Origin: a virus
Strand: one strand, 5' to 3'
IMG/VR virus record: IMGVR_UViG_3300032309_001150
Location: 1 to 54,146 of that record
Length of the DNA stretch: 54,146 nucleotides
The notes under the pieces were generated by a model. It saw only the letters and a program-made list of their open reading frames with translations. It was not told where the DNA came from and ran no database searches. This document shows positions 1-45,403 of this stretch, in pieces (position 1 is the stretch's first letter; each line of letters starts with the position of its first letter). The position numbers were made by a program, and so were the translations under genes.

Positions 1-60
1 CTGCGCCTCTGCTTGCGCTTTTGCTTGTGCCTCTGCTTGAGCTTTTGCTTGTGCATCGGA
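1..60. repeat. 24-bp tandem repeat, also the overlap between the window ends
   Basis: Bases 1-24 and 25-48 are near-identical 24-bp units (differences only at a few positions), and bases 49-60 begin a decayed third unit. On the minus strand each unit encodes AKAQAEAQ. Bases 1-24 are also identical to 54123-54146 at the other end. The end overlap is therefore exactly one repeat unit long, so the true copy number at the junction is uncertain. Confidence 0.8.
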
Positions 61-32690: not shown

Positions 32691-32692
32691 GG

Positions 32693-34111
32693 TCACACCG
32701 CATATGGGTTCACCCTCGCAGGTTGGGGGTCGTACAGATCGTCGTCATCATACCTTGGCGCTGGGTCGATGTCGAGCCAGCCTTGATCCTTCAGCATGCG
32801 GATAGCCTGCGTGGCGGTGTCGACGTAGTCGTCGTGGAGCGAGTCAGGGAAGGAACAGATCTGGCTCAGGAACCCTTCGGCCCAGTTCTTCACCATGCCG
32901 GGGCGCGACTCGCTCTCGGGTAGCCACACACGGCCAGCGGCAAAGACAGCGGCGGCGATCTGGAGCCTCTGCATCTTATCGGCCCGCCCGGGGTTGTAGG
33001 CACGCACAGGCAGGTTAGCGCGGCCCAGTTCTTGGATCAAGGATATGCCAGCCGCCTTGTCCTCGATCAGCAAGATGTCGGGCTTCTTGGCCTTCTTGCC
33101 CTCGCCGTAGCTGTTCTGGAACTCCTCGATCACCCGGGGCTTGAGGTCGGGGAAGCTGAGGTGGTCGGCCCATGCGTCGATCAGCAGGACAGACATGGGG
33201 CCGTCCAGCGGCTTGAATACGCCCCACACCGTGCAGGCGGTCGGGTCGTTGTGGGTCTTCTCGCTGAAGGCGCAGTCCAGCGACATGACGATGTACTCAA
33301 AGTCGGGGAACGGGTTGTCCAGTCCGTCCTTGGTCTTGGCTGGCCATAGTTCGAACATGGATCGGCTGATGACCTTGCCGTCCTCCAGATCCACCAGTTC
33401 GCCCATGACCTCTTGGTCGTACAGCTTGGTTCCCTTGTATTGCTCCAACTGCTTGGCGAAGCTTGGGGCCAAGTTCTTCATGTTGGCGTAGGTGCTGGCG
33501 CGGTCGATCACCACGTCCTCACCCTCGCGGCCCACTAGATCAATGATCAGGTCCTTGGGCTTGGGCGTGGTGGTGGCGATCACCCTCGGCTGTTTGCCAA
33601 GGCGCAGGCCAAACATCATCATGTCCCACGCCTCCTGCGGGTACTGGAAGGCGGCCAACTCGTCTGCCCAGCACCAGTGGAACTGCGGGCCACGCAGGCG
33701 CTCGTAGCTGTCCGCGCTGATGCCGCGGATGCTGGAGCCGTTGACCATCTCAATCACATGATCCTGCTTGTTATAACTAAGTACTAACTCTTTGGGGATG
33801 TTGGCCAGCAGGCCGGATGCACCCTCGAAGCAGGTGAACTTCACGTCACTGCTGGTGGGGGCTAGAACGAGCCCACGGGACTTAGGGTGCGTCCAGCACC
33901 ACCACCATAGGGTTTGGCTCCCGGCGTGGCTTTTGCCCGCTCCACGGCCTGCCAGCAGTAACCAGACGGTCCAATCCATCTTGAGGTCGGGCGGGATCTG
34001 GTAGGCGTGGGCGCTGTTGACCCACTCTAAGTGCTTGATGATGGCCAGCCGCTCCAGTTCTGGCTGGGCCTCGAACTCCCGCGCCGTCTCGGTGTCAAGC
34101 AGATCCAGCAC
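32693..34111 (-). CDS. terL: Terminase large subunit
   Basis: A 472-residue packaging ATPase-nuclease. Walker A is AGRGAGKS (residues 54-61), and Walker B with the catalytic Glu is WCWADE (146-151). The nuclease domain shows D279 in MSLDCAF, the acidic pair E350-D351 in ILLIEDKAAG, and the HDDYVDT motif near residue 434. The frame starts at GTG 34111, overlapping the small-terminase gene by 17 nt; an ATG is not available nearby. It packages DNA through the portal encoded downstream. Terminase type (headful or cos) cannot be read from this sequence. Confidence 0.95.
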   Translation of the reverse strand: MLDLLDTETAREFEAQPELERLAIIKHLEWVNSAHAYQIPPDLKMDWTVWLLLAGRGAGKSHAGSQTLWWWCWTHPKSRGLVLAPTSSDVKFTCFEGASGLLANIPKELVLSYNKQDHVIEMVNGSSIRGISADSYERLRGPQFHWCWADELAAFQYPQEAWDMMMFGLRLGKQPRVIATTTPKPKDLIIDLVGREGEDVVIDRASTYANMKNLAPSFAKQLEQYKGTKLYDQEVMGELVDLEDGKVISRSMFELWPAKTKDGLDNPFPDFEYIVMSLDCAFSEKTHNDPTACTVWGVFKPLDGPMSVLLIDAWADHLSFPDLKPRVIEEFQNSYGEGKKAKKPDILLIEDKAAGISLIQELGRANLPVRAYNPGRADKMQRLQIAAAVFAAGRVWLPESESRPGMVKNWAEGFLSQICSFPDSLHDDYVDTATQAIRMLKDQGWLDIDPAPRYDDDDLYDPQPARVNPYAV

Positions 34112-35435: not shown

Positions 35436-35825
35436 TTAAGCTTCGAGTCTATCGGCAAAGGCACGCTCGGCCTCTTCACCGCGGTTAATGTAGGCGTCTG
35501 AGCCATACACGGGCGCATCTTCGTACCAATGAGCGGCGTCAAGAATGTAACCGTTTTCGAGGGCGTAGTTTACGCGGGCGGCCAATCTCATGGCGCGACC
35601 AAAAGCCACATCGCGCTTATCTTCGAAATGAATCCAGTTGTCGTCCTCAGAAACGACTTGGCGCTCTACGCTGTTGAAAAACACGTTGTGACGAAAGCGC
35701 AGACCGTAATCGTTGGACACCGTCACAAAATAACGGTCTGCTGTAAAGATCTCGCCATCTTCGGTGCGGCCCGCGTTGTAAACGTCGGCTACCACTTCGG
35801 CTGTGAATGTGAACGGGTTTGTCAT
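35436..35825 (-). CDS. Early protein of unknown function under the palindromic promoter
   Basis: A 129-residue acidic protein, with a beta-rich N-terminal half (FTFTAEVVADVYNAGRTEDG, TADRYFVTVSNDYGLRFRHN) and a helical second half. It is expressed from promoter 35855-35897 and carries the AACAGCGAAGGA leader (35832-35843). It shares this control with the DUF932-type gene next to it, so the two are probably co-regulated. No domain is recognised; a DNA-mimic or anti-defence role would fit the acidity but is only a guess. Confidence 0.7.
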   Translation of the reverse strand: MTNPFTFTAEVVADVYNAGRTEDGEIFTADRYFVTVSNDYGLRFRHNVFFNSVERQVVSEDDNWIHFEDKRDVAFGRAMRLAARVNYALENGYILDAAHWYEDAPVYGSDAYINRGEEAERAFADRLEA

Positions 35826-35854: not shown

Positions 35855-35897
35855 TGTCCTAAGACCCTACTATAACGGATCTAAAACCGTATCGGTT
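35855..35897 (-). promoter_or_regulatory. Promoter with palindromic operator (copy B)
   Basis: Read on the minus strand: TGTCAACC-GATACGGTT (AACCGA-T-ACGGTT at 35897-35885, one arm mismatch), 10 nt, TATAGT (35874-35869), then GGTCTTAGGACA (35866-35855). AACCGA lies 17 nt before TATAGT, where a -35 box belongs, yet does not resemble TTGACA. A second TGTCAACC copy lies just upstream. It drives the 129-residue gene. Confidence 0.75.
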
Positions 35898-35943
35898 GAC
35901 ACGGGTTGACAAAAAAACAAAAATATTTTCGGCAACAAGTAGC

Positions 35944-35963
35944 GGGGGGGTCAAAACCCCCCC
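35944..35963 (-). terminator. G7/C7 hairpin after the DUF932-type gene
   Basis: The perfect inverted repeat GGGGGGG-TTTTGA-CCCCCCC on the minus strand lies 16 nt after the stop of the 284-residue gene. It is followed by GCTACTTGTTG, a poor T tract. It probably separates that gene from the next promoter unit (35855-35897). Confidence 0.6.
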
Positions 35964-35979
35964 ACCTTTTGCGCTTGAC

Positions 35980-36834
35980 TTACGCGGCGACAAGTTCCTC
36001 CACGTCAATCACGTTTTGCTTCAGGTTGGCAAAGCCGTCAGCCAACTGCCACAGGGCGCGGTTCAGCTTGACGTTTTCGCTCACGCCACCCACAGCGCGG
36101 GTAGTCAGGCGGCGGCCAGTCTTGGCGCGGCCATGTACGCCACCCTTAACCAAAGACTCTTGGACGCGGTTGAAGGTCGTCCACAGGTCGTTTTTGCGGT
36201 CGTCCCAGCGGTTGGGGACCAGCACACGTTCAGCGGTCACAGGCGCTTGGTCTTGCTCCCAGCGCAGGGACAGGGCCGTGTTAGCAAACAGGCGCTGTTC
36301 GTCTTCGTTCAGGCCGATGGACTTGAAAGTCTCCACGCGCTCTTGGGCAATTTGCAGGTCGTCCAGAATGCGGGTTGCGCCCTCAATCACGTTGTCCACC
36401 ACGTCGCCGCTGTGGCGCACGCGGATGTCGTTGGTCACGTCACCAGCGATCAGGCCGTTGTTGCAAACGAAGCGGAAAAAGCCTGACAGCAATTGGTAGC
36501 TGGAGGAACCGTCGTGGCTGTTCAACAGAATGATCTCGCCCACTTCGCCGTCGCCTTCGATGGCGTCAGCGTGGCGCAAACGAACCAAATGCTTGGTGTG
36601 TTCGCGCTTGCCAGCGTCACGCACGCGGGTCTGGCGCACTTCGTAGGGCTGGAAGCCCTCGCGGCGCAAACCGTCAATGACGTTGATGGTGGGGATGAAT
36701 GTGTAACGGTCGCCGCGTGACTCGTGGGCCTCGCTTGCCACCACGCTGGGGGCGTAGTAGGCGATCTGCTCGTTGGTCAAAGGCACGTTGGAACGGTGGC
36801 CAGAGAACGGGTTGGATTTGCTAAAACGGTACAT
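35980..36834 (-). CDS. DUF932/DUF945-type early protein
   Basis: A 284-residue protein with FIPTINVIDGLRREGFQPYE (~48-66), then HLVRLRHADAI, a LNSHDGSSSYQLLSGFFRFV segment (~103-122) and CNNGLIAGD (~123-131). I know this series from the DUF932 family, carried by plasmids, prophages and phages. Its biochemical role is not settled. Unlike most early genes here it has its own palindromic promoter and leader, and a following hairpin, so it is a separately regulated single-gene unit. Confidence 0.82.
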   Translation of the reverse strand: MYRFSKSNPFSGHRSNVPLTNEQIAYYAPSVVASEAHESRGDRYTFIPTINVIDGLRREGFQPYEVRQTRVRDAGKREHTKHLVRLRHADAIEGDGEVGEIILLNSHDGSSSYQLLSGFFRFVCNNGLIAGDVTNDIRVRHSGDVVDNVIEGATRILDDLQIAQERVETFKSIGLNEDEQRLFANTALSLRWEQDQAPVTAERVLVPNRWDDRKNDLWTTFNRVQESLVKGGVHGRAKTGRRLTTRAVGGVSENVKLNRALWQLADGFANLKQNVIDVEELVAA

Positions 36835-36870
36835 TTTGATTTCCTTCGCTGTTAAAAAAATTTTGGTTTG

Positions 36871-36913
36871 TGTCCGAAGACCCTAATACAACGTGACACA
36901 AACCGATTCGGTT
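36871..36913 (-). promoter_or_regulatory. Promoter with perfect palindromic operator (copy C)
   Basis: On the minus strand: TGTCAACCGAATCGGTT (perfect AACCGA-A-TCGGTT at 36913-36901), 10 nt, a -10-like TGTATT (36890-36885), AGGG, then GGTCTTCGGACA (36882-36871). The leader AACAGCGAAGGA follows at 36853-36842, before ATG 36834. Order and spacing match copy B. Confidence 0.78.
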
Positions 36914-36922
36914 GACATCATT

Positions 36923-37312
36923 TCAAACTTTTTTTGACCCTCGTTTGAAATCTTGCATGTACTGGACGAATTCGGCCAGTGTGCCCTTTTCCTCGCGCAC
37001 CCAGTATTCGGCCTCGTGCACGATGTAGTCGCACCCGTGGTCAAAGCCCGCGTGGTAGCTGGTGTCGGTTAACTCGGCCAAGGCCGACTTGGTTGGCTCG
37101 TCAGCTTCGCAGTGCTGGTGCACGCCGATGAACTTCTCAAACAGGCCGTCCAAGCTTTCGAAGGTGGTGGGCATCTTCAGTTGTTGCTTGGTCTGGCAGT
37201 GTTTGCACACCATACTGTTGCCCTCCAGCACCAAATGCTCGGTGTACTTTTGATCGGCCATCAAGGCTTGAATGTCTTGGTTGACGCGGCGGTTGAATTC
37301 GCTTTTCTCCAT
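36923..37312 (-). CDS. Small early protein with zinc-knuckle-like Cys/His residues
   Basis: A 129-residue protein with C36-x2-C39 (VCKHCQ) and a later H65-x-H67-C68 cluster (GVHQHCEAD), suggesting one zinc site joining two segments. A GFDHGCDYIV segment follows near residues 93-102, and the C-terminus is basic. It is placed 4 nt after the preceding early gene. Function unknown; zinc binding is inferred from residue spacing only. Confidence 0.7.
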   Translation of the reverse strand: MEKSEFNRRVNQDIQALMADQKYTEHLVLEGNSMVCKHCQTKQQLKMPTTFESLDGLFEKFIGVHQHCEADEPTKSALAELTDTSYHAGFDHGCDYIVHEAEYWVREEKGTLAEFVQYMQDFKRGSKKV

Positions 37313-37315
37313 GAT

Positions 37316-37618
37316 TTACTCCAGTGGGCTAGAAGATGCCACGATGGTCGTGGACAGGATGGTCTTGTACGCATTAAGCGCTTCTTTGGTCAGGCTGGTG
37401 TCCGCGTACAGCTTGTCGTAATCAAAAGCGCGGTCGGTGCGCGATGTGATTTTGACGGCGTACTTTGTGCCGACGTAGACTTTTTTGCCATCTGGCAACG
37501 TTGCCAAATCTTTGATTTGGTCTTTGATTTGCTTCGACTGTTCGGTCAAAGCTTTAATGCGGGCGTCGATGTCGCCCAGTGTGTCGACCAAGGTAATGAT
37601 AGACAGATCGTTGTTCAT
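37316..37618 (-). CDS. Small early protein with helical N-terminus
   Basis: A 100-residue protein starting at ATG 37618, fixed by the AACAGCGAAGGA leader (37637-37626) 7 nt upstream. The first half is a long helix (VDTLGDIDARIKALTEQSKQ), the second half a beta-rich unit (GKKVYVGTKYAVKITSRTDR). Such helix-then-strand proteins of ~100 residues are common in phage early operons, often of unknown role. A promoter (37665-37695) lies directly upstream. Confidence 0.72.
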   Translation of the reverse strand: MNNDLSIITLVDTLGDIDARIKALTEQSKQIKDQIKDLATLPDGKKVYVGTKYAVKITSRTDRAFDYDKLYADTSLTKEALNAYKTILSTTIVASSSPLE

Positions 37619-37664
37619 TTCGCTTTCCTTCGCTGTTGTTGATGAGTTTGTAGTGTAACCTACG

Positions 37665-37695
37665 ATTACACAACGCCACAATAGCGGCGTTGGTT
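37665..37695 (-). promoter_or_regulatory. GTCAACC-type promoter with a different inverted repeat
   Basis: On the minus strand: GTCAACCAA (37698-37690), then an inverted repeat AACGCC-N8-GGCGTT (37691-37672), then a -10-like TGTAAT (37670-37665), 19 nt from AACCAA. The shared AACAGCGAAGGA leader follows. It keeps the GTCAACC box but has its own operator-like repeat instead of AACCGA-N-TCGGTT. Confidence 0.6.
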
Positions 37696-37705
37696 GACAA
37701 GTATA

Positions 37706-38011
37706 TCAAGAAATTTTGTTGTTTTCTTCCAACTTTAACAAATGCAGGGTTTCGGCCAGCAGATCGGCCTCGTTGTAGCCCCAATGTTTGGGGAATCCCT
37801 TGGTTCCAAGGCCGTGCAGGCCCGTCTTGCCCCTGTGATGCTCTGGGCATAGTGGGATGACGTCCATGTGGCTTGCACGCCTTCCTGCCCCCGTTCCCGC
37901 CCTTGGGTGGTGCAATTCAGCGGGCGTGCCCGGGTAGCCCATCCTGCGGCACACCGCGCACCCCAGTTCGGCCACCGCCATCATGTGCTTCTTCTCCGCA
38001 ATTGTGGTCAT
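37706..38011 (-). CDS. Ref-like HNH nuclease (RecA-dependent nuclease family)
   Basis: A 101-residue protein with two Cys pairs and an HNH core: C18-x2-C21, AELHHPR (H34-H35), DVIPLCPEHH (C55, H58, H59) and LHGLG (H66). P1 Ref and related phage proteins share this arrangement; Ref cuts DNA at RecA-bound displacement loops. Length equals the catalytic domain only, without the long basic N-terminal tail of P1 Ref. GGAGG precedes the ATG, which lies inside the upstream zinc-ribbon gene. It joins RusA and the exonuclease as part of a recombination set. Confidence 0.82.
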   Translation of the reverse strand: MTTIAEKKHMMAVAELGCAVCRRMGYPGTPAELHHPRAGTGAGRRASHMDVIPLCPEHHRGKTGLHGLGTKGFPKHWGYNEADLLAETLHLLKLEENNKIS

Positions 38012-38150
38012 GGCCTTTGGCCTCCGTTTTTTTCAACCAGACTTGGCCGCACCCGGTGCATCGGTATGCGGTTCGCTCGTCGATGATGGTGCGCTTGTCG
38101 TGGTGGCCGCCCACCGATCTGCCGTAGAACGTGCGCACCACCTCGATCAT
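37917..38150 (-). CDS. Small zinc-ribbon-like protein overlapping the Ref-like gene
   Basis: A 77-residue protein with C31-x2-C34 (RCTGCGQVW) and H47/H49/C51, a plausible single zinc site. It starts at ATG 38150 overlapping the upstream stop as ATGA, which supports it. Its last ~31 codons lie inside the Ref-like gene in another frame and are Gly/Arg-rich, so the functional part is probably residues 1-55. Function unknown. Confidence 0.62.
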   Translation of the reverse strand: MIEVVRTFYGRSVGGHHDKRTIIDERTAYRCTGCGQVWLKKTEAKGHDHNCGEEAHDGGGRTGVRGVPQDGLPGHAR

Positions 38151-38305
38151 TGCTTTTTAAGCAAATTGCTTCGAATGCTGTCAGCAAGCACCTGACGGAG
38201 CCATACCGAGCCACCAAGGCGCTTGAACTCGTCTTTGTAGGCCTTGGTGACCCGCACGGTGATCACAACAGCAGAACTGGTTAGTTCACTTTTGGGTCGC
38301 GGCAT
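38147..38305 (-). CDS. Tiny ribbon-helix-helix-like protein
   Basis: A 52-residue basic protein: a short strand-like N-terminus (SAVVITVRVTKAYKDEFKRL) followed by GGSVWLRQVLADSI and a Lys-rich end. One strand and two helices of this length suggest a ribbon-helix-helix DNA-binding dimer like Arc. It starts inside the upstream gene (AAGGAA just before) and its stop overlaps the next start as ATGA. It is a candidate regulator of the early region. Confidence 0.68.
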   Translation of the reverse strand: MPRPKSELTSSAVVITVRVTKAYKDEFKRLGGSVWLRQVLADSIRSNLLKKQ

Positions 38306-38501
38306 CTTGTTCCTTACGCTTATCCACCATCTCGTACAGCTTCTTTTCTAGCGCGTCAATCATCACATGGGCTGGGCCGATCTTGGCAATGGCCTCTTCC
38401 ATCTGGCGCTCCATCTCTTTGGCCAAAACATACAGGTGGCTCATGCGGTAGCCAATCAAACCCGTTACAACGCCCGCACAAAAATATAAAAAATCACTCA
38501 T
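38286..38501 (-). CDS. Small membrane-anchored helical protein
   Basis: A 71-residue protein with one N-terminal membrane segment (residues ~3-20, FLYFCAGVVTGLIGYRM) and a charged coiled-coil-like remainder (AKEMERQMEEAIAKIG). AGAGGAAAA lies just upstream of the ATG. It overlaps the next gene by 20 nt. An early inner-membrane protein may affect the host envelope or superinfection; nothing in the sequence settles this. Confidence 0.72.
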   Translation of the reverse strand: MSDFLYFCAGVVTGLIGYRMSHLYVLAKEMERQMEEAIAKIGPAHVMIDALEKKLYEMVDKRKEQDAATQK

Positions 38502-38511
38502 GGTTTTTCCT

Positions 38512-38634
38512 CTATTTGTAAACCGCTATTATTTCTCCGCCAAATTGTTTTTGAATGTCTTTGGCGTGGTTTTCTGTCCAAAAAAATTTGGGTTCGTGTT
38601 GGTCCTTTATCCAAACAAATCCAAACGGCTTCAT
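38512..38634 (-). CDS. 40-residue early protein
   Basis: MKPFGFVWIKDQHEPKFFWT then a helical end; stop TAG at 38514. The start overlaps the upstream stop as ATGA and AAGGAAAAACC precedes it. Small but in a perfectly packed chain. It has many aromatic residues and no recognisable domain. Confidence 0.65.
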   Translation of the reverse strand: MKPFGFVWIKDQHEPKFFWTENHAKDIQKQFGGEIIAVYK

Positions 38635-38777
38635 GGTTTTTCCTTGTGCTCTGCCTCAAGTTCACGCAAGTCCATTGCGACGTCCGCCACGCCATGCCAA
38701 TCGCATCGGGCAATCATCACATGCAGGTACTCAATCAAAATTTCGCGCTGTGTTTCGTAGTCGGTGTAATCAGTCAT
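38631..38777 (-). CDS. 48-residue early protein
   Basis: An acidic small protein beginning MTDYTDYETQREILIEYLHV, ending in a Glu/Lys-rich helix. Its start overlaps the upstream stop as ATGA, and its stop overlaps the next start in the same way. A longer frame in another phase (38498-38713) is less likely because it breaks this chain. Function unknown. Confidence 0.68.
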   Translation of the reverse strand: MTDYTDYETQREILIEYLHVMIARCDWHGVADVAMDLRELEAEHKEKP

Positions 38778-38992
38778 GTATTCTTCTCCTTCAGTTTGGC
38801 TTCAATGGCATCTGCAAACCTCACCCAAAACGGCTTGCTGTCAACAATCTGTTTGACTTGGTCATAAACAAAAGATTGCTCATCCGCGGTCAGCCCTACC
38901 CATGTGCGCTGTGGTGACCAGCCAAGTGAGGTTGCAATTCTGGTTGCCGCTGACTTGTCAATAACAGGCTCTTGGCTTTCCAACTCTGTCAT
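38774..38992 (-). CDS. Small conserved phage early protein
   Basis: A 72-residue protein containing ATSLGWSPQRTWVGLTADEQ followed by helices and a Lys-rich end. The GW...WVGLT-E pattern is one I know from many small phage proteins of unknown function. It overlaps both neighbours by 4 nt. Confidence 0.75.
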   Translation of the reverse strand: MTELESQEPVIDKSAATRIATSLGWSPQRTWVGLTADEQSFVYDQVKQIVDSKPFWVRFADAIEAKLKEKNT

Positions 38993-39294
38993 GCTTCCCT
39001 CGCTTCCAACATTGCGTCTGCCATTGCATATGCGCGACTGGCGACTATTTCTCTTTCAATTTGGTTCCAGTAAAAGTACTCTTGATCTGTATTCAAATCG
39101 TGTTTGACCATGCGCATTGCAACCTCAATTGAAGCCGCCGCAAAGTAATCACGCAAGGTCATGCCTGTCATGTCCGTTCGATGTGGATTTGGAAAAGCTT
39201 TTTCAGCTTTTATTGCCGCTGTCACGGCTTCCTTCCTCTGCTTGGCTTGTCGCTCAATCTCGTTGAACGCTTCGTCTTCTGGGTCAAGAATCAT
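38989..39294 (-). CDS. Small conserved phage early protein (MTLRDYFAAA type)
   Basis: A 101-residue helical protein. Residues ~45-60 read GMTLRDYFAAASIEVAM, a recurrent motif of phage and prophage early proteins. The N-terminus is Glu/Lys-rich and the end contains YAMADAMLEAREA. It overlaps both neighbours by 4 nt. The motif family has no settled function. Confidence 0.75.
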   Translation of the reverse strand: MILDPEDEAFNEIERQAKQRKEAVTAAIKAEKAFPNPHRTDMTGMTLRDYFAAASIEVAMRMVKHDLNTDQEYFYWNQIEREIVASRAYAMADAMLEAREA

Positions 39295-39491
39295 GCTTGT
39301 TCTCCTCTGGCTCTGATTTCTTCTGCCACTTTGTCGGTTATTTCAAGATTCCAACTAAATGCAACTTGAGCACAGGCTTCACGTTCTTTGGCGGCTACAA
39401 GGTTGGCAAAGCGTACAAGCCCCTCTTGATTAAAATTTAATCCATTGATGGTGTTTTCTATTGCCATCTCAATGATTTCATCTTGAGTCAT
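39291..39491 (-). CDS. Small helical early protein
   Basis: A 66-residue protein starting at ATG 39491, chosen for the AGGGAGA site 6 nt upstream. It includes EGLVRFANLVAAKEREACAQ, a pattern common in phage early proteins, where an Arg-Glu-Ala-Cys segment ends a helix. It overlaps the upstream membrane-protein gene by 14 nt and the downstream gene by 4 nt. Confidence 0.72.
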   Translation of the reverse strand: MTQDEIIEMAIENTINGLNFNQEGLVRFANLVAAKEREACAQVAFSWNLEITDKVAEEIRARGEQA

Positions 39492-39612
39492 CTCTATCTC
39501 CCTTCTGCATTCTTTCAATCACATACAAAAAGACTGCGACACATACGCCGCCAAGGCCAAAGCCAATGAACAACGTAGCGATCAGTGCAAATACATCCCA
39601 AGCCATGTTCAT
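39478..39612 (-). CDS. 44-residue membrane protein
   Basis: A short protein (MNMAWDVFALIATLFIGFGL) with one membrane segment (~5-30) and a charged C-terminus. ATG 39612 is chosen over an earlier frame that runs through the upstream gene; it overlaps the upstream stop as ATGA. Function unknown. Confidence 0.65.
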   Translation of the reverse strand: MNMAWDVFALIATLFIGFGLGGVCVAVFLYVIERMQKGDRDDSR

Positions 39613-39941
39613 ACAGTCACCCTCACTTCCTGTCGAGCATTGGCTTGCTCGGTGCGCCAGATCTCGACGCGCAACTCGGCGGCCTTCATGTCCCAACGTA
39701 ATTTTTCTTCAATCATCACCGCCTCTTTGAGGCCGTCGATAAACAACCTGTATTCCTCATGCGCGTATGCTTCGCGCTCTTGCGCGGCAATTACCTTCTC
39801 GCCGCTTTCTTTCATCAATCGAGCCTTCAGCGACTTGCTGTAATACTCAAGCGCGGTCCTGTCCGCTTTTGCTTGCGCGTAGTGCTTGCCGTATCTCAGT
39901 ATGTAATCAACGGCTTCGTGTGGATCTCGTTCTTCGCTCAT
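39609..39941 (-). CDS. Coiled-coil early protein
   Basis: A 110-residue, almost entirely helical, charged protein. It contains YILRYGKHYAQAKADRTALE (~13-32) and a long Glu/Lys/Arg helix to the end. AGGAG lies 8 nt before the ATG, and the gene overlaps RusA upstream by 4 nt. I recall this type next to rusA in other phages, as an unnamed early protein. Confidence 0.75.
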   Translation of the reverse strand: MSEERDPHEAVDYILRYGKHYAQAKADRTALEYYSKSLKARLMKESGEKVIAAQEREAYAHEEYRLFIDGLKEAVMIEEKLRWDMKAAELRVEIWRTEQANARQEVRVTV

Positions 39942-40324
39942 GCTTTCGCTCCTATAAATTGTTGAACACTGTCAGCTTCCCAAATGCGGACCTTTAACAT
40001 CCCTCCTTTTTCTTGCGCCCAAAAAATTCTCAGATCGACAATCTGGCTGTCGTCCTTGTAAACACCCGCATGCGTCAACGCATCCAGCGTGGCCTTCAAT
40101 AAATTGTCCAGATCACGCACGCGGTTATCTGGCCGCCATGCTTCGATCTCCACCACAAGTTTGCCTGTGTGCGTTGCGGCCTTGCGCTGAATCATCATCT
40201 GCGCCAGCACGGCCTCACGGTATGCGCGGCCCTCTTGGCTGATCAACACGCGGCCTGCCACGCTTCGCCAGTAGCGGTTAACGCTTGGTGGCCAAGGCAA
40301 CACGATTTCATCTTTGCTTTGCAC
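39938..40324 (-). CDS. rusA: RusA-type Holliday junction resolvase
   Basis: A 128-residue protein, matching the ~120 residues of E. coli RusA. Start GTG 40324 is preferred to ATG 40390 because GGAGG lies 6 nt upstream and because the sequence then begins just before the conserved LPWPPSVNRYWR. The acidic active-site pattern is visible in RVRDLDNLLKATLDAL and KDDSQIVDL. It cuts four-way junctions during recombination or before packaging. The first bases overlap the upstream gene by 17 nt. Confidence 0.9.
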   Translation of the reverse strand: MQSKDEIVLPWPPSVNRYWRSVAGRVLISQEGRAYREAVLAQMMIQRKAATHTGKLVVEIEAWRPDNRVRDLDNLLKATLDALTHAGVYKDDSQIVDLRIFWAQEKGGMLKVRIWEADSVQQFIGAKA

Positions 40325-40490
40325 GCTCCGCCTCCATTCTTTTAACCAGATCAGCACTTGCTCCAATTCCTCGACGCTTATCAATGTCACGCTTTACTCC
40401 TTCCCACCATAATTGCGCGTTGTCTAACCCGACCTCGCCAATCTTCTGTTCCCTCCTCTTCATCCACTCCCTCGCTTCGCACTGGCGCAT
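40308..40490 (-). CDS. Small early protein nested at the end of another gene (DUF7696-like?)
   Basis: A 60-residue protein starting around ATG 40490 (GGAG lies 12 nt upstream), though the frame is open to 40592. It contains MRQCEAREWMKRREQKIGEV and DIDKRRGIGASADLVKRM, a Cys-Glu-Ala-Arg start followed by an Arg-Gly segment. I recall this combination in small phage proteins labelled DUF7696. It overlaps the 75-residue gene by 104 nt in another frame. The start is uncertain. Confidence 0.6.
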   Translation of the reverse strand: MRQCEAREWMKRREQKIGEVGLDNAQLWWEGVKRDIDKRRGIGASADLVKRMEAERAKQR

Positions 40491-40614
40491 GTGTTCCACA
40501 GTCTCCGGTGATATAGAGACATTCGATGGTGCAAGCCTCGGAGTAGGAATGGCCTTCACGGATTTTGTCGAGGATTTTGGTGGCTTCTTCATAGGTCAAC
40601 TCAATAAGGGCCAT
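40387..40614 (-). CDS. Small early protein overlapping its neighbour extensively
   Basis: A 75-residue protein from ATG 40614, chosen over ATG 40620 because GAGG sits 9 nt upstream. The first 30 residues look folded (ALIELTYEEATKILDKIREG). The rest, Asp/Glu/Gly-rich then basic, is shared in DNA with the nested gene 40308-40490 and may be a run-on. It begins inside the stop of the zinc-binding-like gene upstream. Confidence 0.6.
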   Translation of the reverse strand: MALIELTYEEATKILDKIREGHSYSEACTIECLYITGDCGTHAPVRSEGVDEEEGTEDWRGRVRQRAIMVGRSKA

Positions 40615-40843
40615 GATCATCGACCTCGGTGAACGGTTTGACAGGCGGGTGGTTGAACACCACCTTGCCGGGTATTTTGGTCAGGCCGTAGTCGGGCTCC
40701 TTTCCCCACGCATGCTCGGAACACTTGCGCCAGCCCATGTTGACCGACCACCGCTTGCCGCACCCAGCCACTTGGCACATCAGGGACTTGCCCTCGTTGG
40801 CATCCATGTCGAACTTGTCCAATTTTGGTTTTTCGAATGTCAT
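40601..40843 (-). CDS. Small zinc-finger-like early protein
   Basis: An 80-residue protein with C23-x4-C28 (MCQVAGCGKRW) and C41-x2-H44 (KCSEHAW), a likely single zinc site. It overlaps the replication-protein gene upstream by 4 nt and the next gene downstream by 14-20 nt. Close linkage to a replication protein suggests a DNA-related role, which is inference. Confidence 0.72.
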   Translation of the reverse strand: MTFEKPKLDKFDMDANEGKSLMCQVAGCGKRWSVNMGWRKCSEHAWGKEPDYGLTKIPGKVVFNHPPVKPFTEVDDHGPY

Positions 40844-41583
40844 TTGTTGTACTTCCCATCAATGATTTTTTGAAAATTGGTCGCGTTGACCACCCACTCC
40901 AGATCTGGAACCCACACCCGGCCCTTAGTTTCGAAGCCTTTTGCCAAGGTTGTGTCATCGGCAATGTAGGCAAAAAAGCTTTCCCACCACTTCAGACCGT
41001 CAGAAACGGTTCTATATCCATTTTTTGAAAAAGGTGAGGGTTTGGATGCCTGCACCCATCTTTGCCGCATATTGGCCTGTCTGGAGCCCTCCCAGACCCG
41101 TGGTTGTGGCAGGTGCGGGAGCTTGGCCAACCAAAGCTTCAAAATTTCTTGGTGCGGGCAGGTTGGAAACGCAGTTTCCGACAAAGAAGCTTTAGCTTCT
41201 TTAATTTGGTTATTGGTTATTGGTTCATGGTTATTGGTTGGTTGAACGTCCGTTGAACGGGCGTTGCTCCTGCGTTCAGCAGATGCTTTGCCAGCGCGGG
41301 ACGCTTGGTCAACTTTCGCCTTGTAATGCTGGATTTCGTTCAACACGCGATCGCACACCCAACCCTCGCCGTAGCGATTGAAAAACTCGGCCAGCACGTC
41401 GCTGACTACGGCGGCGTGGTCGCGCAAACGGATCAGCCTCGCAATTTCTGCGGCTTCAAGCGGCAATGGTTTTTCGTGGAGATAGCACCAATCGAGCATC
41501 CGGCGGTAGGCTAAATCTTCAATTGGATCGAGGTGCGCTGTGTGGGACTGGTAGTCGCCAATATTGAACTGGTAGTAGTGCAT
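40840..41583 (-). CDS. DUF1376-type replication protein
   Basis: A 247-residue protein. The N-terminal ~85 residues (YYQFNIGDYQSHTAHLDPIE, then DLAYRRMLDWCYLHEKPLP) are a DUF1376 domain, usual in phage replication initiation proteins. The middle is a Ser/Asn/Arg-rich linker with a repetitive NNHEPITNNQIKEAKASLSE stretch. The C-terminal region (~165-247) contains SDGLKWWESFFAYIADD and WVPDLEWVVN, as in primosome-type replication proteins. In the absence of a helicase or polymerase it probably recruits host replication proteins to a phage origin. The 114-nt region before it holds a promoter. Confidence 0.82.
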   Translation of the reverse strand: MHYYQFNIGDYQSHTAHLDPIEDLAYRRMLDWCYLHEKPLPLEAAEIARLIRLRDHAAVVSDVLAEFFNRYGEGWVCDRVLNEIQHYKAKVDQASRAGKASAERRSNARSTDVQPTNNHEPITNNQIKEAKASLSETAFPTCPHQEILKLWLAKLPHLPQPRVWEGSRQANMRQRWVQASKPSPFSKNGYRTVSDGLKWWESFFAYIADDTTLAKGFETKGRVWVPDLEWVVNATNFQKIIDGKYNK

Positions 41584-41681
41584 CGGAACCTTACTTCATT
41601 GGTCATCTTCACATGAGAAACCTCGGCAGGACGGTGAAGAATCGTCTTTTCGGGAGCTACCCTAGCCGTGTTTCGAACTAT

Positions 41682-41710
41682 ATCATAACGTAATACGCTA
41701 CGACTTGGTT
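41682..41710 (-). promoter_or_regulatory. GTCAACC-type promoter for the replication gene
   Basis: On the minus strand GTCAACCAA lies inside the 3' end of the upstream gene (AACCAA at 41710-41705), and TATGAT (41687-41682) follows after exactly 17 nt, with TATAGT overlapping just downstream. No full palindrome is present. The gap 41584-41697 contains nothing else I can identify. Confidence 0.6.
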
Positions 41711-42027
41711 GACTTGGGCCTGCCGCCCTTTTGGCCAACTTGGCGGTTGATTGACACCTGATGCAGGCGCTTCATCAGGTCGCGGTCGATCACATCGCTG
41801 TGCCATGAGTTGTCCTCGCTGTTGAGCTTGAAGAACATCATCAGGGCCTTGGTGACCACCTTCCAATCCATGCCGATTGCGTCTGCAATATCAGCTTGGT
41901 CATTGAACAACGGCTTCTCGTTCAGGTAGTACAGATCAACCATCCTGCGAAGCGCCAGATCCTCAAGATCACTTATGCCGTCGGTCTTGTCGTAGTGTTT
42001 TTCGATGTCAAATTTGTACCACCTCAC
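41698..42027 (-). CDS. Second, shorter DUF1376-type protein
   Basis: A 109-residue protein that is essentially only a DUF1376 domain: RWYKFDIEKHYDKTDGISDL, then DLALRRMVDLYYLNEKPLF, then a helical part ending in a basic tail (GQKGGRPKSTKS). It resembles the first ~90 residues of the 247-residue protein downstream (same LALRRM-x-D-x-x-Y pattern). It overlaps the regulator gene by 4 nt, so regulator and this protein are co-translated. It may be a competing or regulatory partner of the larger initiator. Confidence 0.8.
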   Translation of the reverse strand: MRWYKFDIEKHYDKTDGISDLEDLALRRMVDLYYLNEKPLFNDQADIADAIGMDWKVVTKALMMFFKLNSEDNSWHSDVIDRDLMKRLHQVSINRQVGQKGGRPKSTKS

Positions 42028-42233
42028 TTGACGCCTCCAAAAAGATCTGGCCGCAAATCGCGTCTTTTGATTTCACGCAATGTCAAACGCTCAATTTTAC
42101 AAGCCAACTCTGCCGAACACTGCACACGACCACTGATGACCAAAGAGAGCCAAGTGCGAGTGATACCTAGATTGCTTGCCATCATGGCTTTTGACCCTCT
42201 CGGTTTGTTTTTGAAATACTGTTCCCATGTCAT
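42024..42233 (-). CDS. Cro/YdaS-like DNA-binding regulator
   Basis: A 69-residue protein starting at ATG 42233 (AGGAG upstream). A helix-turn-helix lies at ~14-36 (KAMMASNLGITRTWLSLVIS) followed by a CKIERLTLREIKRRDLRPD end. That ending is the signature of Cro/YdaS-like phage regulators, in which the last part reads ...RRDLRPDLF. It is the first leftward gene from the divergent control region and its own promoter carries the palindromic element. It is the natural candidate to bind AACCGA-N-TCGGTT or TTTAACG-N3-CGTTAAA. Confidence 0.85.
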   Translation of the reverse strand: MTWEQYFKNKPRGSKAMMASNLGITRTWLSLVISGRVQCSAELACKIERLTLREIKRRDLRPDLFGGVK

Positions 42234-42258
42234 TATTTTTCTCCTATACTCCAAAATT

Positions 42259-42302
42259 ATTGTAACTCATGTCAACCGATTCGTTTAACGTCCCGTTAAA
42301 CA
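42259..42302. promoter_or_regulatory. Divergent early control region (operator copy D)
   Basis: AACCGATTCGTTT (42274-42286, one arm mismatch) overlaps the perfect inverted repeat TTTAACG-TCC-CGTTAAA (42284-42300). Leftward, a TACAAT (42264-42259) lies 9 nt beyond the first element. Rightward, TGTCAACCGA is followed after 17 nt by TAAACA (42297-42302). A direct repeat AAGCGAATCAT occurs at 42312-42322 and 42331-42341, the second covering the first rightward start codon. Confidence 0.7.
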
Positions 42303-42339
42303 TGGCACAATAAGCGAATCATTTTTTTGGAAGCGAATC

Positions 42340-42498
42340 ATGCACAACGACAAAGACCGCGAAGACGCAGAGCGCCTGCAACGGGCGTTGCTTGAGACAG
42401 AAAACGATTCCCCTACATGGTTATCCGACATTGCGGCGGTTGTTTTAATTTTGCTGTTTGTCGCTATTGGCTTTGTGCTGGCGGAGTTCATCAAATGA
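42340..42498 (+). CDS. Small membrane protein, first rightward early gene
   Basis: A 52-residue protein with a charged N-terminus (MHNDKDREDAERLQRALLET), then a membrane helix (~30-48, AAVVLILLFVAIGFVLAEF). Its stop overlaps the next start as ATGA. The direct repeat AAGCGAATCAT spans its start codon. No function can be inferred beyond membrane location. Confidence 0.7.
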   Translation: MHNDKDREDAERLQRALLETENDSPTWLSDIAAVVLILLFVAIGFVLAEFIK

Positions 42499-42686
42499 CC
42501 GACGACAAAGATTTAATCGAGCTTTGTGCCGACCGAATGCGCATGCTTGAGGAGGCCCTGCAACGGGCTGAGACAGGCGTCGCTACCCCCGAGGATTGGG
42601 TGTTTATTCGCATGGAATGCGGTATGCCCATGACTCATTTTTCAACTACAAAACTAGGAAAAAATCATGAGCTTGACAGCGTCTGA
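42495..42686 (+). CDS. Small acidic helical early protein
   Basis: A 63-residue soluble protein (TDDKDLIELCADRMRMLEEA, then TPEDWVFIRMECGM). It shares a LQRA segment and even the DNA CTGCAACGGGC with the preceding gene, a possible local duplication. It overlaps the ssDNA-binding-like gene by 20 nt; that gene's ribosome-binding site AGGAAAA lies inside its end. Function unknown. Confidence 0.7.
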   Translation: MTDDKDLIELCADRMRMLEEALQRAETGVATPEDWVFIRMECGMPMTHFSTTKLGKNHELDSV

Positions 42687-43320
42687 CAGCGGCGGTGGTG
42701 GAAGTTTCACCCCAGTTCCACCCGGTATGCACCTTGGGCGGTGCTACCGAATCATTGACCTTGGCACACAAGACACCGAATACAAGGGTGTCAAGGGCCA
42801 GCAACGTAAGGTGATGTTGCAATTTGAAGTGCACGGCGAAGACGACAGTGGTGCGCCATTGGCGACCTCCAAGGGTGAGCCAATGTCCATCAGCAAGAAC
42901 TACACCCTCAGTCTCAGCGAAAAGGCCACTCTACGGGGTGATTTGCAAGCTTGGCGAGGCCGCGCATTTACCCCGGATGAGTTGCGTGGGTTTGATCTTG
43001 AGAAGGTGCTTGGCGCTTGGGCCATGCTGGCAGTTGCCAAAAACATTGGACAGGACGGGAAAGAGTACACCAACATCATGAACATCAACCCTGTGCCCAA
43101 GGTGCTGAAGGACACACTGCCGATTGGGTACAACAAGTTGCACATGTTCTCCACCGCAAACCCTGACATGGAGTTGTTCGAGACTTTCAGCAACAGCCTC
43201 AAGGCCAAGATTGAAAAGTCCCCCGAGTGGCAAGACCGTGGAGCCTCAACTAAAGCCAAAGCCAAAGAACAAAAGGCTGTTTCGGGGTTTGACGACATGG
43301 ACGACGACATTCCGTTCTGA
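42667..43320 (+). CDS. Single-stranded-DNA-binding-like protein
   Basis: A 217-residue protein. Residues ~20-150 are beta-rich (PPGMHLGRCYRIIDLGTQDT, KVMLQFEVHGEDDSG, AMLAVAKNIGQDGKEYTNIM). The C-terminus ends in an acidic tail FDDMDDDIPF, the hallmark tip of SSB proteins that binds partner proteins. A recombination exonuclease follows two genes later, a frequent pairing with ssDNA-binding or annealing proteins. It is longer than classic SSB and the OB-fold is inferred rather than shown. Confidence 0.75.
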   Translation: MSLTASDSGGGGSFTPVPPGMHLGRCYRIIDLGTQDTEYKGVKGQQRKVMLQFEVHGEDDSGAPLATSKGEPMSISKNYTLSLSEKATLRGDLQAWRGRAFTPDELRGFDLEKVLGAWAMLAVAKNIGQDGKEYTNIMNINPVPKVLKDTLPIGYNKLHMFSTANPDMELFETFSNSLKAKIEKSPEWQDRGASTKAKAKEQKAVSGFDDMDDDIPF

Positions 43321-43322
43321 TT

Positions 43323-43679
43323 ATGAAACACCCTTACGACATCTTCACTTTGGATTTGTTTGGACGGTTTTTTGGCACAACCAAGAAAAAAATGGTGCGC
43401 CGAAAAGATCCAGACACCAGTCACAAAGCCGCCGAAAAGGTGGACTCTGCATCTCTGGAGCGCATGGTTTATGAGGTCATTGCGCAATTTCCAAATGGGT
43501 GCATATCTGATGACGTTGTGATGGCGTTGCCGGGCTACGGGGTGCAGACCCTTACGCCTCGGTTTTCGCCCTTACTCAAGAAGGGTTTCATTGTCGACAC
43601 TGGCGAACGCCGTACTGGCAAAGCAGGAAGACAACAGCGCGTAATGAAAGTAATTAAATCAGTAAAGGAACAGGCATGA
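43323..43679 (+). CDS. Winged-helix-type early DNA-binding protein
   Basis: A 118-residue protein. From residue 24 (MVRRKDPDTSHKAAEKVD) it matches a phage family with a winged-helix core: LERMVYEVIAQFPNGCISDD, then TLTPRFSPLLKKGFI and ERRTGKAGRQQRV. Either ATG 43323 or ATG 43392 could be the start; the family usually begins at the latter. It probably binds DNA and may regulate or help replication. It overlaps the next gene as ATGA. Confidence 0.75.
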   Translation: MKHPYDIFTLDLFGRFFGTTKKKMVRRKDPDTSHKAAEKVDSASLERMVYEVIAQFPNGCISDDVVMALPGYGVQTLTPRFSPLLKKGFIVDTGERRTGKAGRQQRVMKVIKSVKEQA

Positions 43680-44032
43680 CAAACATTGAACAAAAAACAT
43701 TGGACAAGGCAGTTACTCTTTTGAACGCTTTGAAGATTCAATTTCACATCGTTGACCGTGACGGAAAGAAGCACGGAAACATGCAGGTTGCGCCCCCAAA
43801 AAAAACTCGAAAACCATCAATGTATAAGCATGGCGAACGAACCGAATACATTACCAAGCATTTGAAGGGTATGGAGGTTGGTGATGTTAAAGTTGTCCCC
43901 TTTGGCGACTACCCTCCAGAGATGTTGACGTCTAACGTGTCAAGTTGGTGTTGCAACAGGCTTGGCGCTGGCGGAGCGGAAGTTACGGCCAATAAAGAGG
44001 CAAAACGCATTGAAGTTTTGCGCACCAAGTAA
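43676..44032 (+). CDS. Small basic early protein
   Basis: A 118-residue protein with a helical N-terminus, a Lys/Pro-rich linker (QVAPPKKTRKPSMYKHGERT) and a C-terminal globular part (GDVKVVPFGDYPPEMLTSNV, then SWCCNRLG). AAAGGAA precedes its ATG, which overlaps the upstream stop. The C-terminal part, with a basic residue-rich turn and Asn-Arg-Leu-Gly, looks like a small DNA-binding module, but I recognise no family. Confidence 0.68.
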   Translation: MTNIEQKTLDKAVTLLNALKIQFHIVDRDGKKHGNMQVAPPKKTRKPSMYKHGERTEYITKHLKGMEVGDVKVVPFGDYPPEMLTSNVSSWCCNRLGAGGAEVTANKEAKRIEVLRTK

Positions 44033-44039
44033 GGACCCC

Positions 44040-44816
44040 ATGACTATTGAAGCTAAAGAGCCACGCGCCAGCGAATCAAACCATTGGTACACCCGCGAGG
44101 GTGTGCCTATGTACACCGTGGAGTCCCTGAAGGGCGGCCAACGCAATACCACCTTGCGGGATGCCCGTAAGCTAAACCTTGTCCCCAGCGTCACCACGGT
44201 GCTAAATGTGGCCGCCAAGCCTGCATTGACGCAGTGGCTGTTGAATCAGGTGCTGTTGGCCGCGTTGACGCTTCCTCGGCGCGACTTGGAGCCAGAGGAT
44301 CAATACATTGCGCGGATTTTGGACGACAGCAAAGAGCAGGGTCGATCTGCCGCCGACGCTGGTACAGACATTCATGCGTCAATCCAAGGGTTTTATGAGG
44401 GCAAGACCCTGCTTGACGAGACGCACCGCGAACACGTTACTGGCTGTGATGTGCGTTTGCATGAGGCGTTTGGGCTTCAGTCTTGGGTGGCCGAAAAGGC
44501 TTTCTCCCACGAGCTTGGCTTTGGTGGCAAGTGTGACCTGCACTGTGTTGAAGGCGATGGCATCGTGGCCGACATCAAGACCAAGGAGTTTGACGACCCT
44601 AAAAAGGTAGAGGGCTACGACGAGCATTTGATGCAGTTGTCAGCCTACCGCGTTGGCCTTGGCATTCCAAATGCGCGGTGCGCAAACGTGTTTGTCAGCC
44701 GTAGTGTCAAGGGGCTGGTGGTGGTCAAAGAATGGAGCCAAGAGGATCTGGCGCGGGGCTGGGACATGTTCCAGCACCTGCTGGCCTTCTGGCAGTTAAA
44801 AAACAAACATAAGTAA
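44040..44816 (+). CDS. PD-(D/E)XK exonuclease (Cas4/RecB-like)
   Basis: A 258-residue nuclease; start ATG 44040 chosen because it follows AAGGACCCC and the frame's earlier ATG (43962) lies in the preceding gene. The active site is complete: H112 in GTDIHASI, D166 in GGKCDLH, D178-x-K180 in IVADIKTKEF, and the QLSAY motif (199-203). This is the layout of RecB/Cas4-type exonucleases used for phage recombination or replication end processing. With the ssDNA-binding-like protein it could form a recombination pair. Confidence 0.88.
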   Translation: MTIEAKEPRASESNHWYTREGVPMYTVESLKGGQRNTTLRDARKLNLVPSVTTVLNVAAKPALTQWLLNQVLLAALTLPRRDLEPEDQYIARILDDSKEQGRSAADAGTDIHASIQGFYEGKTLLDETHREHVTGCDVRLHEAFGLQSWVAEKAFSHELGFGGKCDLHCVEGDGIVADIKTKEFDDPKKVEGYDEHLMQLSAYRVGLGIPNARCANVFVSRSVKGLVVVKEWSQEDLARGWDMFQHLLAFWQLKNKHK

Positions 44817-44821
44817 TTAAA

Positions 44822-45061
44822 ATGTTAACAGAAAGCAAAATCCGAGAAATATTTTTTCATAGTGGCCACCCCCGACCGGGGGCTGTATTGGCGATGGACA
44901 TTGACTACGTTCAGTTTGCTGAAAATGTAGAGAAGGTGGTTGAGTACGAAAAGGCGGAGGCCGCCTATCGCGATGTCATCTCCGAAGCAAAGAGACTCAA
45001 TGAAAATATTGGGCGCGAGTTGGAGGAGTGGGCCAAAGAAAGATTGAAAAAATATTCTTAA
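44822..45061 (+). CDS. Small helical early protein
   Basis: A 79-residue protein. It opens with LTESKIREIFFHSGHPRPG, continues with DIDYVQFAENVEKVVEYEKA and ends as a charged helix. The first part resembles short phage proteins that begin with a helix and then a His-Pro turn. It ends just before the palindromic promoter at 45069. The ribosome-binding site is weak. Confidence 0.68.
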   Translation: MLTESKIREIFFHSGHPRPGAVLAMDIDYVQFAENVEKVVEYEKAEAAYRDVISEAKRLNENIGRELEEWAKERLKKYS

Positions 45062-45068
45062 CCCTGTC

Positions 45069-45111
45069 AACCGATTCGGTTCCTAGCGCGTTATAGTATG
45101 GTCTTAGGACA
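45069..45111 (+). promoter_or_regulatory. Promoter with perfect palindromic operator (copy A)
   Basis: TGTCAACCGATTCGGTT with perfect AACCGA-T-TCGGTT (45069-45081), 10 nt, TATAGT (45092-45097), then GGTCTTAGGACA (45100-45111), then the leader AACAGCGAAGGA (45119-45130). It is the same order and spacing as copies B and C, but on the plus strand about 8-9 kb away. Confidence 0.8.
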
Positions 45112-45136: not shown

Positions 45137-45403
45137 ATGAGAGCAATTATCAAATCGGCACTGAAGATTCACGAGTTGGCTTACGACTTGGAAAACATTG
45201 CATTGGATGACAAGAAGAAAGTCGAGGACTACACCGACTCAGAAATCTTGCACGAAGCAAAGCACGTTCTTGGTTTGTTCCTAGACGAAACCAACCCTCA
45301 CTGGAACAACGAAGACTTGCGTGGTGAGAATGGGCCAGAGCGACAACTGTGGGCGCGTGGCGAAGTCCGCAAACTGAATGCTTTTATTAAAAAGTACAAC
45401 TAA
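45137..45403 (+). CDS. Small early protein under the palindromic promoter
   Basis: An 88-residue acidic helical protein starting at ATG 45137, fixed by the AACAGCGAAGGA leader 6 nt upstream; an earlier ATG at 45098 would lie within the promoter itself. It contains ALKIHELAYDLENIALDDKK and SEILHEAKHVLGLFLDETNP. It is the only plus-strand member of the leader family. Being a single-gene unit with its own promoter and terminator suggests separate timing or dose. Function unknown. Confidence 0.75.
   Translation: MRAIIKSALKIHELAYDLENIALDDKKKVEDYTDSEILHEAKHVLGLFLDETNPHWNNEDLRGENGPERQLWARGEVRKLNAFIKKYN

What the first reader, a model, noticed from the sequence alone, without database searches (positions are those of the whole stretch)
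35855..45111. A promoter family with a palindrome in place of the -35 box
AACCGA-N-TCGGTT occurs perfectly at 36901-36913 and 45069-45081, and with one arm mismatch at 35885-35897 and 42274-42286. A -10-like hexamer follows after 10 nt in three and 9 nt in one. Two further promoters (37.69 kb and 41.71 kb) keep only GTCAACCAA, 17-19 nt from a -10. The element lies where -35 should be but is not TTGACA, suggesting an activator-dependent promoter or an altered-specificity factor. Members are on both strands, so position is not explained by duplication of one locus.
Basis: partly seen in the sequence, partly recalled or inferred. Interest (0 to 1): 0.7.

Follow-up and report, generated by a model that had tools for sequence, protein, structure and literature searches.

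The report
Phage promoters with an ECF-like signature
A freshwater phage and its relatives start many of their early genes from a conserved two-part DNA signal, TGTCAACC then 16 bases then CGTT, which is not the standard bacterial promoter and resembles promoters read by alternative (ECF-type) sigma factors; the palindrome first noticed is an extra feature of only some of these promoters.

Summary
The four palindromes exist where stated and exceed chance: four hits at up to one mismatch against 0.10 expected, all intergenic. They mark a real promoter family, but the palindrome is not its defining feature. In every class of this promoter, in the window and in related viral contigs, the constant part is (T)GTCAACC, exactly 16 nt, then CGTT. 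Of 24 non-coding TGTCAACC-type boxes in contigs fetched without using CGTT, all 24 have CGTT at position 25. TGTCAACC inside genes never does. The right arm TCGGTT occurs only in class A (S1, S2, S4); S3's right arm is missing in its orthologues. A sister clade has TTGAC(A/G) and GTGTTAAACT at two of the orthologous loci, so the -35 box was replaced at both. AAC-N17-CGTT matches ECF sigma promoters (GGAAC-N16-CGTT; GTAACC-N16-CGAA; TGTCACA-N16-CGTC), and sigma-70 -10 conservation fails in S2, S3 and S5. No sigma factor, MotA or AsiA was detected in the window, no gene tracks the motif, and sampled beta-proteobacterial genomes show no such regulon. The reading factor is therefore unknown.

The parts
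35874..35901 (-). S1 promoter core (class A): TGTCAACCGATACGGTT-N7-CGTT, followed by ATAGT; drives gene 35436-35825. A second, tandem TGTCAACC lies 10 nt further upstream (35904-35911).
36890..36917 (-). S2 promoter core (class A): TGTCAACCGAATCGGTT-N7-CGTT; drives the DUF932 gene 35980-36834
   Evidence: conserved upstream of DUF932 orthologues in L006, L009, L010, L039
42270..42297 (+). S3 promoter core: TGTCAACCGATTCGTTT-N7-CGTT (its palindrome is not conserved in orthologues); faces the rightward operon (first ORF 42340), divergent from the YdaS gene
45065..45092 (+). S4 promoter core (class A): TGTCAACCGATTCGGTT-N7-CGTT; drives gene 45137-45403
37672..37699 (-). S5 promoter core without right arm: TGTCAACC-N16-CGTTG; drives gene 37316-37618
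41687..41714 (-). S6 promoter core without right arm: AGTCAACC-N16-CGTTAT; lies upstream of the DUF1376 replication gene 40840-41583
35856..35865 (-). GTC-TTAG-GAC dyad in the S1 leader (position 37 of the promoter; near the expected RNA 5' end)
36872..36881 (-). GTC-TTCG-GAC dyad in the S2 leader
45101..45110 (+). GTC-TTAG-GAC dyad in the S4 leader
42024..42233 (-). 69-aa YdaS/Cro-like HTH protein (PF15943, E 3e-11), divergent from S3
42284..42302 (.). GTTTAAC-GTCCC-GTTAAAC dyad overlapping S3: likely operator of the YdaS-like protein (inference)
   Evidence: similar TTAAAC/GTTAGA dyads in sister phages that also carry YdaS
38147..38305 (-).

Best explanation
S1-S6 are one phage promoter family whose core is a bipartite element, GTCAACC (-35 position), 16 nt, CGTT (-10 position). 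It is most likely read by RNA polymerase carrying a non-sigma-70, ECF-type specificity factor. The factor is probably supplied by the host, or is a phage protein too divergent to recognise. The RNA would start about 8-9 nt after CGTT, placing the conserved GTC-N4-GAC dyad at the 5' end of class A messages. The TCGGTT right arm, which completes the 13-bp palindrome, is an additional operator half-site on class A promoters only, so a dimeric regulator can bind over the -35 element and tune them. Shown: the sequence core, its fixed spacing, its position before genes, its conservation across phage clades, and the absence of detectable sigma domains in the window. Inferred: the ECF-type reader, the start site and the function of the right arm.
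For: In contigs fetched without using CGTT, 24 of 24 non-coding TGTCAACC-type boxes before an SD and start codon have CGTT at position 25; coding copies have none. In 15 non-redundant class A sites selected only on the arms and the leader, C25 15/15, G26 14/15, T27 15/15, T28 15/15, while the sigma-70 key positions are weaker (A-11 13/15, T-7 10/15). Across S3/S5/S6 orthologues only GTCAAC and CGTT are invariant, and S5 has G at -11. Other phage clades keep the core with no right arm and different sequence after CGTT. The geometry matches published ECF promoters: GGAAC-N16-CGTT with an almost invariant AAC and tolerated CATT (L030 and L042 also have a CATT site), GTAACC-N16-CGAA, TGTCACA-N16-CGTC. 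At DUF932 and the S5 gene a sister clade has TTGAC(A/G) and TGTTAAACT instead, so both boxes changed together.
Against: No sigma region 2 or 4 domain in the window. Strict TGTCAACC-N16-CGTTAT is rare and scattered in 399 genomes of one beta-proteobacterial order, with no regulon visible, and the class A pattern occurs in none of the GTDB genome contigs. The host is unknown. Most class A sites also carry a fair TATAnT, so host sigma-70 plus an activator could read them. No transcript starts are known.
Confidence: 0.45

Rival explanations
1. MotA-like activation: a phage DNA-binding protein occupies TGTCAACC(GA) in place of the -35 contact, and host sigma-70 uses the TATAnT that overlaps CGTT as its -10.
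For: The box is centred near -30 exactly where a sister clade has TTGACA. T4 middle promoters have this layout, with a MotA box centred at -30. Most class A sites have a TATAnT-like hexamer.
Against: T4 middle promoters need an excellent -10, but S3 and S5 have none at the fixed place. C25 and G26 are near-invariant without a sigma-70 reason. No MotA or AsiA homologue was found. The three proteins shared only by the first motif-positive phages (38147-38305, 40308-40592, 40601-40843) are not shared by the near-full-length motif-positive contig G427.
Confidence: 0.3
2. The palindrome is a repressor operator laid over a weak host sigma-70 promoter: the regulator switches these genes off, and transcription rests on the -10 plus the A/T-rich upstream tract.
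For: The dyad overlaps -35 and the spacer; A/T-rich tract upstream at -16..-8; sister phages carry dyads overlapping their promoters next to a Cro-like gene.
Against: The most conserved half (TGTCAACC) persists where no dyad exists. No site retains a TTGACA -35, which repression alone would not require. CGTT conservation is unexplained.
Confidence: 0.15
3. Chance or duplication: the repeats are copies of one duplicated segment without function.
For: S1 and S4 share leader sequence beyond the core.
Against: The core is conserved in diverged orthologues while the bases between the boxes drift; six loci on both strands; far more hits than in shuffles.
Confidence: 0.03

Closest known systems
EcfG promoters of alpha-proteobacteria (GGAAC-N16-CGTT; PMC7083833)
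   Same: AAC in the upstream box, CGTT (or CATT) downstream, spacer of 16-17
   Different: Upstream box is TGTCAACC rather than GGAAC, with AAC-N17 here; these are phage genes; reader not identified
Caulobacter sigma-F promoters (GTAACC-N16-CGAA; PMC3511200)
   Same: Identical AACC-N16-CG geometry
   Different: CGTT instead of CGAA; TGTC before AACC
ECF41 promoters (TGTCACA-N16-CGTC; PMC3426412)
   Same: TGTC start, CGT-type -10, similar spacing
   Different: TGTCAACC versus TGTCACA; ECF41 normally controls a single host transcript
T4 middle promoters (MotA box plus sigma-70 -10; PMC2988021)
   Same: A phage-specific box centred near -30 replaces the -35 element
   Different: No MotA/AsiA found; the -10 is not reliably sigma-70-like; the box is unrelated
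phiEco32 and 7-11 phage sigma promoters (PMC4331800)
   Same: Low-copy, well-conserved phage-specific promoters in one genome
   Different: Those phages encode a recognisable sigma factor; none detected here

Membership tests
ECF-sigma-dependent promoters | AAC motif in the -35 element | tested here: met
   GTCAAC invariant in all S3/S5/S6 orthologues; some class A sites read GTAAAC (L030, L034, L042) and still keep AAC
ECF-sigma-dependent promoters | CGT-type -10 at 16-17 nt | tested here: met
   CGTT at fixed spacing in 24 of 24 unbiased sites
ECF-sigma-dependent promoters | Dependence on an ECF sigma factor | not testable with these tools
   Needs genetics or in vitro transcription; no sigma r2/r4 in the window, host unknown
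Phage-encoded sigma promoter systems (phiEco32 type) | The phage encodes the sigma factor | tested here: not met
   PF04542, PF08281 and PF04545 give no match in the window; a highly divergent sigma cannot be excluded
T4 middle (MotA-type) promoters | Phage box centred at -30 in place of -35 | tested here: met
   Position compared with sister-clade TTGACA
T4 middle (MotA-type) promoters | Strong sigma-70 -10 element | tested here: not met
   S3 and S5 lack it at the fixed place
T4 middle (MotA-type) promoters | MotA and AsiA proteins | tested here: not met
   PF09114 and PF09010 no match; families are narrow, so analogues are not excluded
Operator of the 69-aa YdaS/Cro-like protein | Site present at promoters of phages carrying the same recognition helix | tested here: not met
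   L009 and L012 have near-identical helices but different promoter boxes
Single-subunit phage RNA polymerase promoters | Phage RNA polymerase gene | tested here: inconclusive
   Eight selected ORFs, most of the large ones, gave no polymerase in Pfam; PF00940 search of the window empty but its control also silent

The most novel reading that the evidence does not exclude
A group of freshwater phages runs several core early genes from promoters that only an ECF-type, non-sigma-70 polymerase can read, either by borrowing a host stress sigma factor or with an unrecognised phage factor, while a sister clade uses ordinary TTGACA promoters at two of the same loci: a promoter-specificity switch at orthologous genes.
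Probability: 0.35. Interest if true: 0.75.

Novelty: new variant of a known kind. Interest (0 to 1): 0.52.

Why it matters
Phages that rely on host polymerase usually use sigma-70 promoters, an encoded sigma factor, or an activator. A genome-wide set of ECF-like phage promoters with no detectable phage sigma factor would suggest that a host stress sigma factor, or an unknown small phage protein, controls infection. The sister clade gives a natural comparison in which the promoter type differs at the same loci, so the switch can be tested by simple promoter swaps. The consensus TGTCAACC-N16-CGTT also allows operons to be annotated in a large uncultured phage group.

Tried and rejected
(2) 52-aa MPRPKSE protein, possibly ribbon-helix-helix: present in all motif-positive phages of the first clade and absent from the sister clade. 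But its family has 347 relatives in viral contigs; of 79 fetched loci only L086 (the same phage as L030) carries the promoters, L087 being part of the same group. The near-full-length motif-positive contig G427 gave no match, and the fold search found nothing. (3) The other two clade-specific proteins, 40308-40592 and 40601-40843, are not in G427 either. (4) Stand-alone sigma region-4 protein in L005, L006, L008, L039 and L042: not in the window or L009. (5) Host regulon: not visible in 399 genomes of one beta-proteobacterial order. (6) Phage record search by DNA: no match. (7) RNA folding of leaders: three-pair hairpins are weak and not better than shuffles, so the GTC-N4-GAC dyad may act as DNA.

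Full report
What was checked. Four hits with up to one mismatch compare with a mean of 0.10 and a maximum of 2 in 300 dinucleotide shuffles. All four lie between genes and face a gene. The window is a virus record of 54,146 bases with terminase, portal, capsid and internal-virion-protein-like genes. Its ends share a 24-nt repeat and an open frame runs across the joined ends, so it is probably a near-complete circular genome. The closest named phages by terminase and portal are the uncultured MW202545 (55-60% identity) and Caulobacter phages RW, RLK, KcrB and GB2A (46-48%).

The shared unit is larger than, and different from, the palindrome. Related contigs were found through DUF932 and through the arms alone. 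About half of the exact 17-base matches in viral contigs are coding-sequence chance hits without CGTT; the rest are promoters of relatives. Orthologues of S3, S5 and S6 in L005-L010 and L039 keep GTCAACC and CGTT but not TCGGTT. Their only invariant columns are GTCAAC and CGTT.

The unbiased test. I listed every TGTCAACC-type box followed by an SD and a start codon, without asking for CGTT. In contigs fetched without using CGTT, all 24 non-coding boxes have CGTT at position 25; one further non-coding copy is the tandem box 10 nt upstream of S1. Copies inside genes never have CGTT there. A pattern search then found more clades (L184, L186, L187, L189 and its kin, L191) in which the same core stands without any right arm and with different sequence after CGTT. 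The sites from that last search are biased towards CGTT and were not counted in the 24.

Comparison with a sister clade. In L011-L013 and L017 (70% identical DUF932) the DUF932 promoter, and in the same group the S5-gene promoter, has TTGAC(A/G) at -35 and GTGTTAAACT at -10, with a GTTTAA-N7-TTAAAC dyad. MW202545 has a comparable family, TCTAAC-N5-GTTAGA, over its -10. The spacing lines up with class A. So at these two loci TTGACA has been exchanged for TGTCAACCGA and TGTTA for CGTTA.

Why not plain sigma-70. Class A sites often carry TATAnT after CGT, but position -11 is G in S2 and in all S5 orthologues, T at -7 is present in 10 of 15, and S3 and S5 have no acceptable hexamer at the fixed place. 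CGTT is almost unchanging. The literature gives ECF promoters of the same build: GGAAC-N16-CGTT with an almost invariant AAC and CATT or TGTT variants, GTAACC-N16-CGAA, TGTCACA-N16-CGTC. One site in L030, L034 and L042 has CATT. Resemblance to these promoters is shown; dependence on such a factor is not.

Who reads it. Sigma region 2 and 4 models find nothing in the window. A 183-186-aa protein with a clear sigma region 4 (E about 1e-20) exists in some relatives but not in the window or L009. MotA and AsiA are absent by model search. Three small genes tracked the motif at first, but the near-full-length motif-positive contig G427 shares none of them by tblastn. The strict core is rare in 399 genomes of one beta-proteobacterial order, 35 hits against 7 for the reversed control, scattered and partly inside genes. 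That order was chosen through a single MAG hit, so the host question is open, and a host ECF factor with only one or two targets would escape this test.

Palindrome and YdaS. The right arm TCGGTT is conserved throughout class A across diverged relatives, which suggests a dimeric regulator at these promoters. S3's palindrome is probably accidental. YdaS-family proteins are described as Cro analogues (PMC8630535). Here the gene sits divergently from S3 in the phages where the locus is covered, next to a TTAAAC-type dyad whose sequence changes with the phage, which is the more likely operator.

Leader. GTC-N4-GAC sits at position 37 (38 once) in 13 of 15 class A sites, against 0.02 expected, with loops TTCG, TTAG, TCAG, TCAA or TCCG. 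As RNA it would be a 5'-terminal hairpin, but it is short and does not fold better than shuffles.

Verdict. The feature is a phage promoter family with an ECF-like core; the palindrome is an accessory. The reading factor is unknown, and the ECF-type reading is favoured at 0.45 over a MotA-like activator at 0.30.

Noticed in passing
L039:5547-6098, L005:2377-2928, L006:10921-11472, L008:919-1470, L042:5048-5413: Stand-alone sigma-70 region-4 protein (PF04545 E about 1e-20; recognition helix KERIRQIE/QERIRQIE) encoded just upstream of a class A promoter in several relatives, downstream of DUF932 in most; absent from the window.
   Followed up: partly
L079:10955-11000 and other promoters of MW202545: A different promoter family in a distant relative: TCTAAC-N5-GTTAGA dyad overlapping an extended -10 (GTGTTAGAAT), at the YdaS divergent region and at least four other genes.
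   Followed up: partly
L184, L191 (and S5 in the window, about 37650-37665): TTGTAG-GTTACA-CTACAA inverted repeat after CGTT in the S5-type leaders; folds as a 6-pair hairpin.
   Followed up: partly
L115: Repeated TGTTCCTAGTAACA (5 copies with up to 2 mismatches) upstream of genes in an unrelated freshwater viral contig: possibly another palindromic promoter or operator family.
   Followed up: no
window 28548-32696: 1382-aa protein with PcfJ-like and ADP-ribosyltransferase-PolyVal matches: a polyvalent protein.
   Followed up: no
window 36851-36881: In S2 the leader UCUUCG can pair with the ribosome-binding CGAAGG; not consistent across other class A loops.
   Followed up: partly
window 1-24 and 54123-54146: 24-nt direct terminal repeat inside a repetitive gene with the reading frame continuing across the joined ends, so the record is probably circular.
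   Followed up: partly
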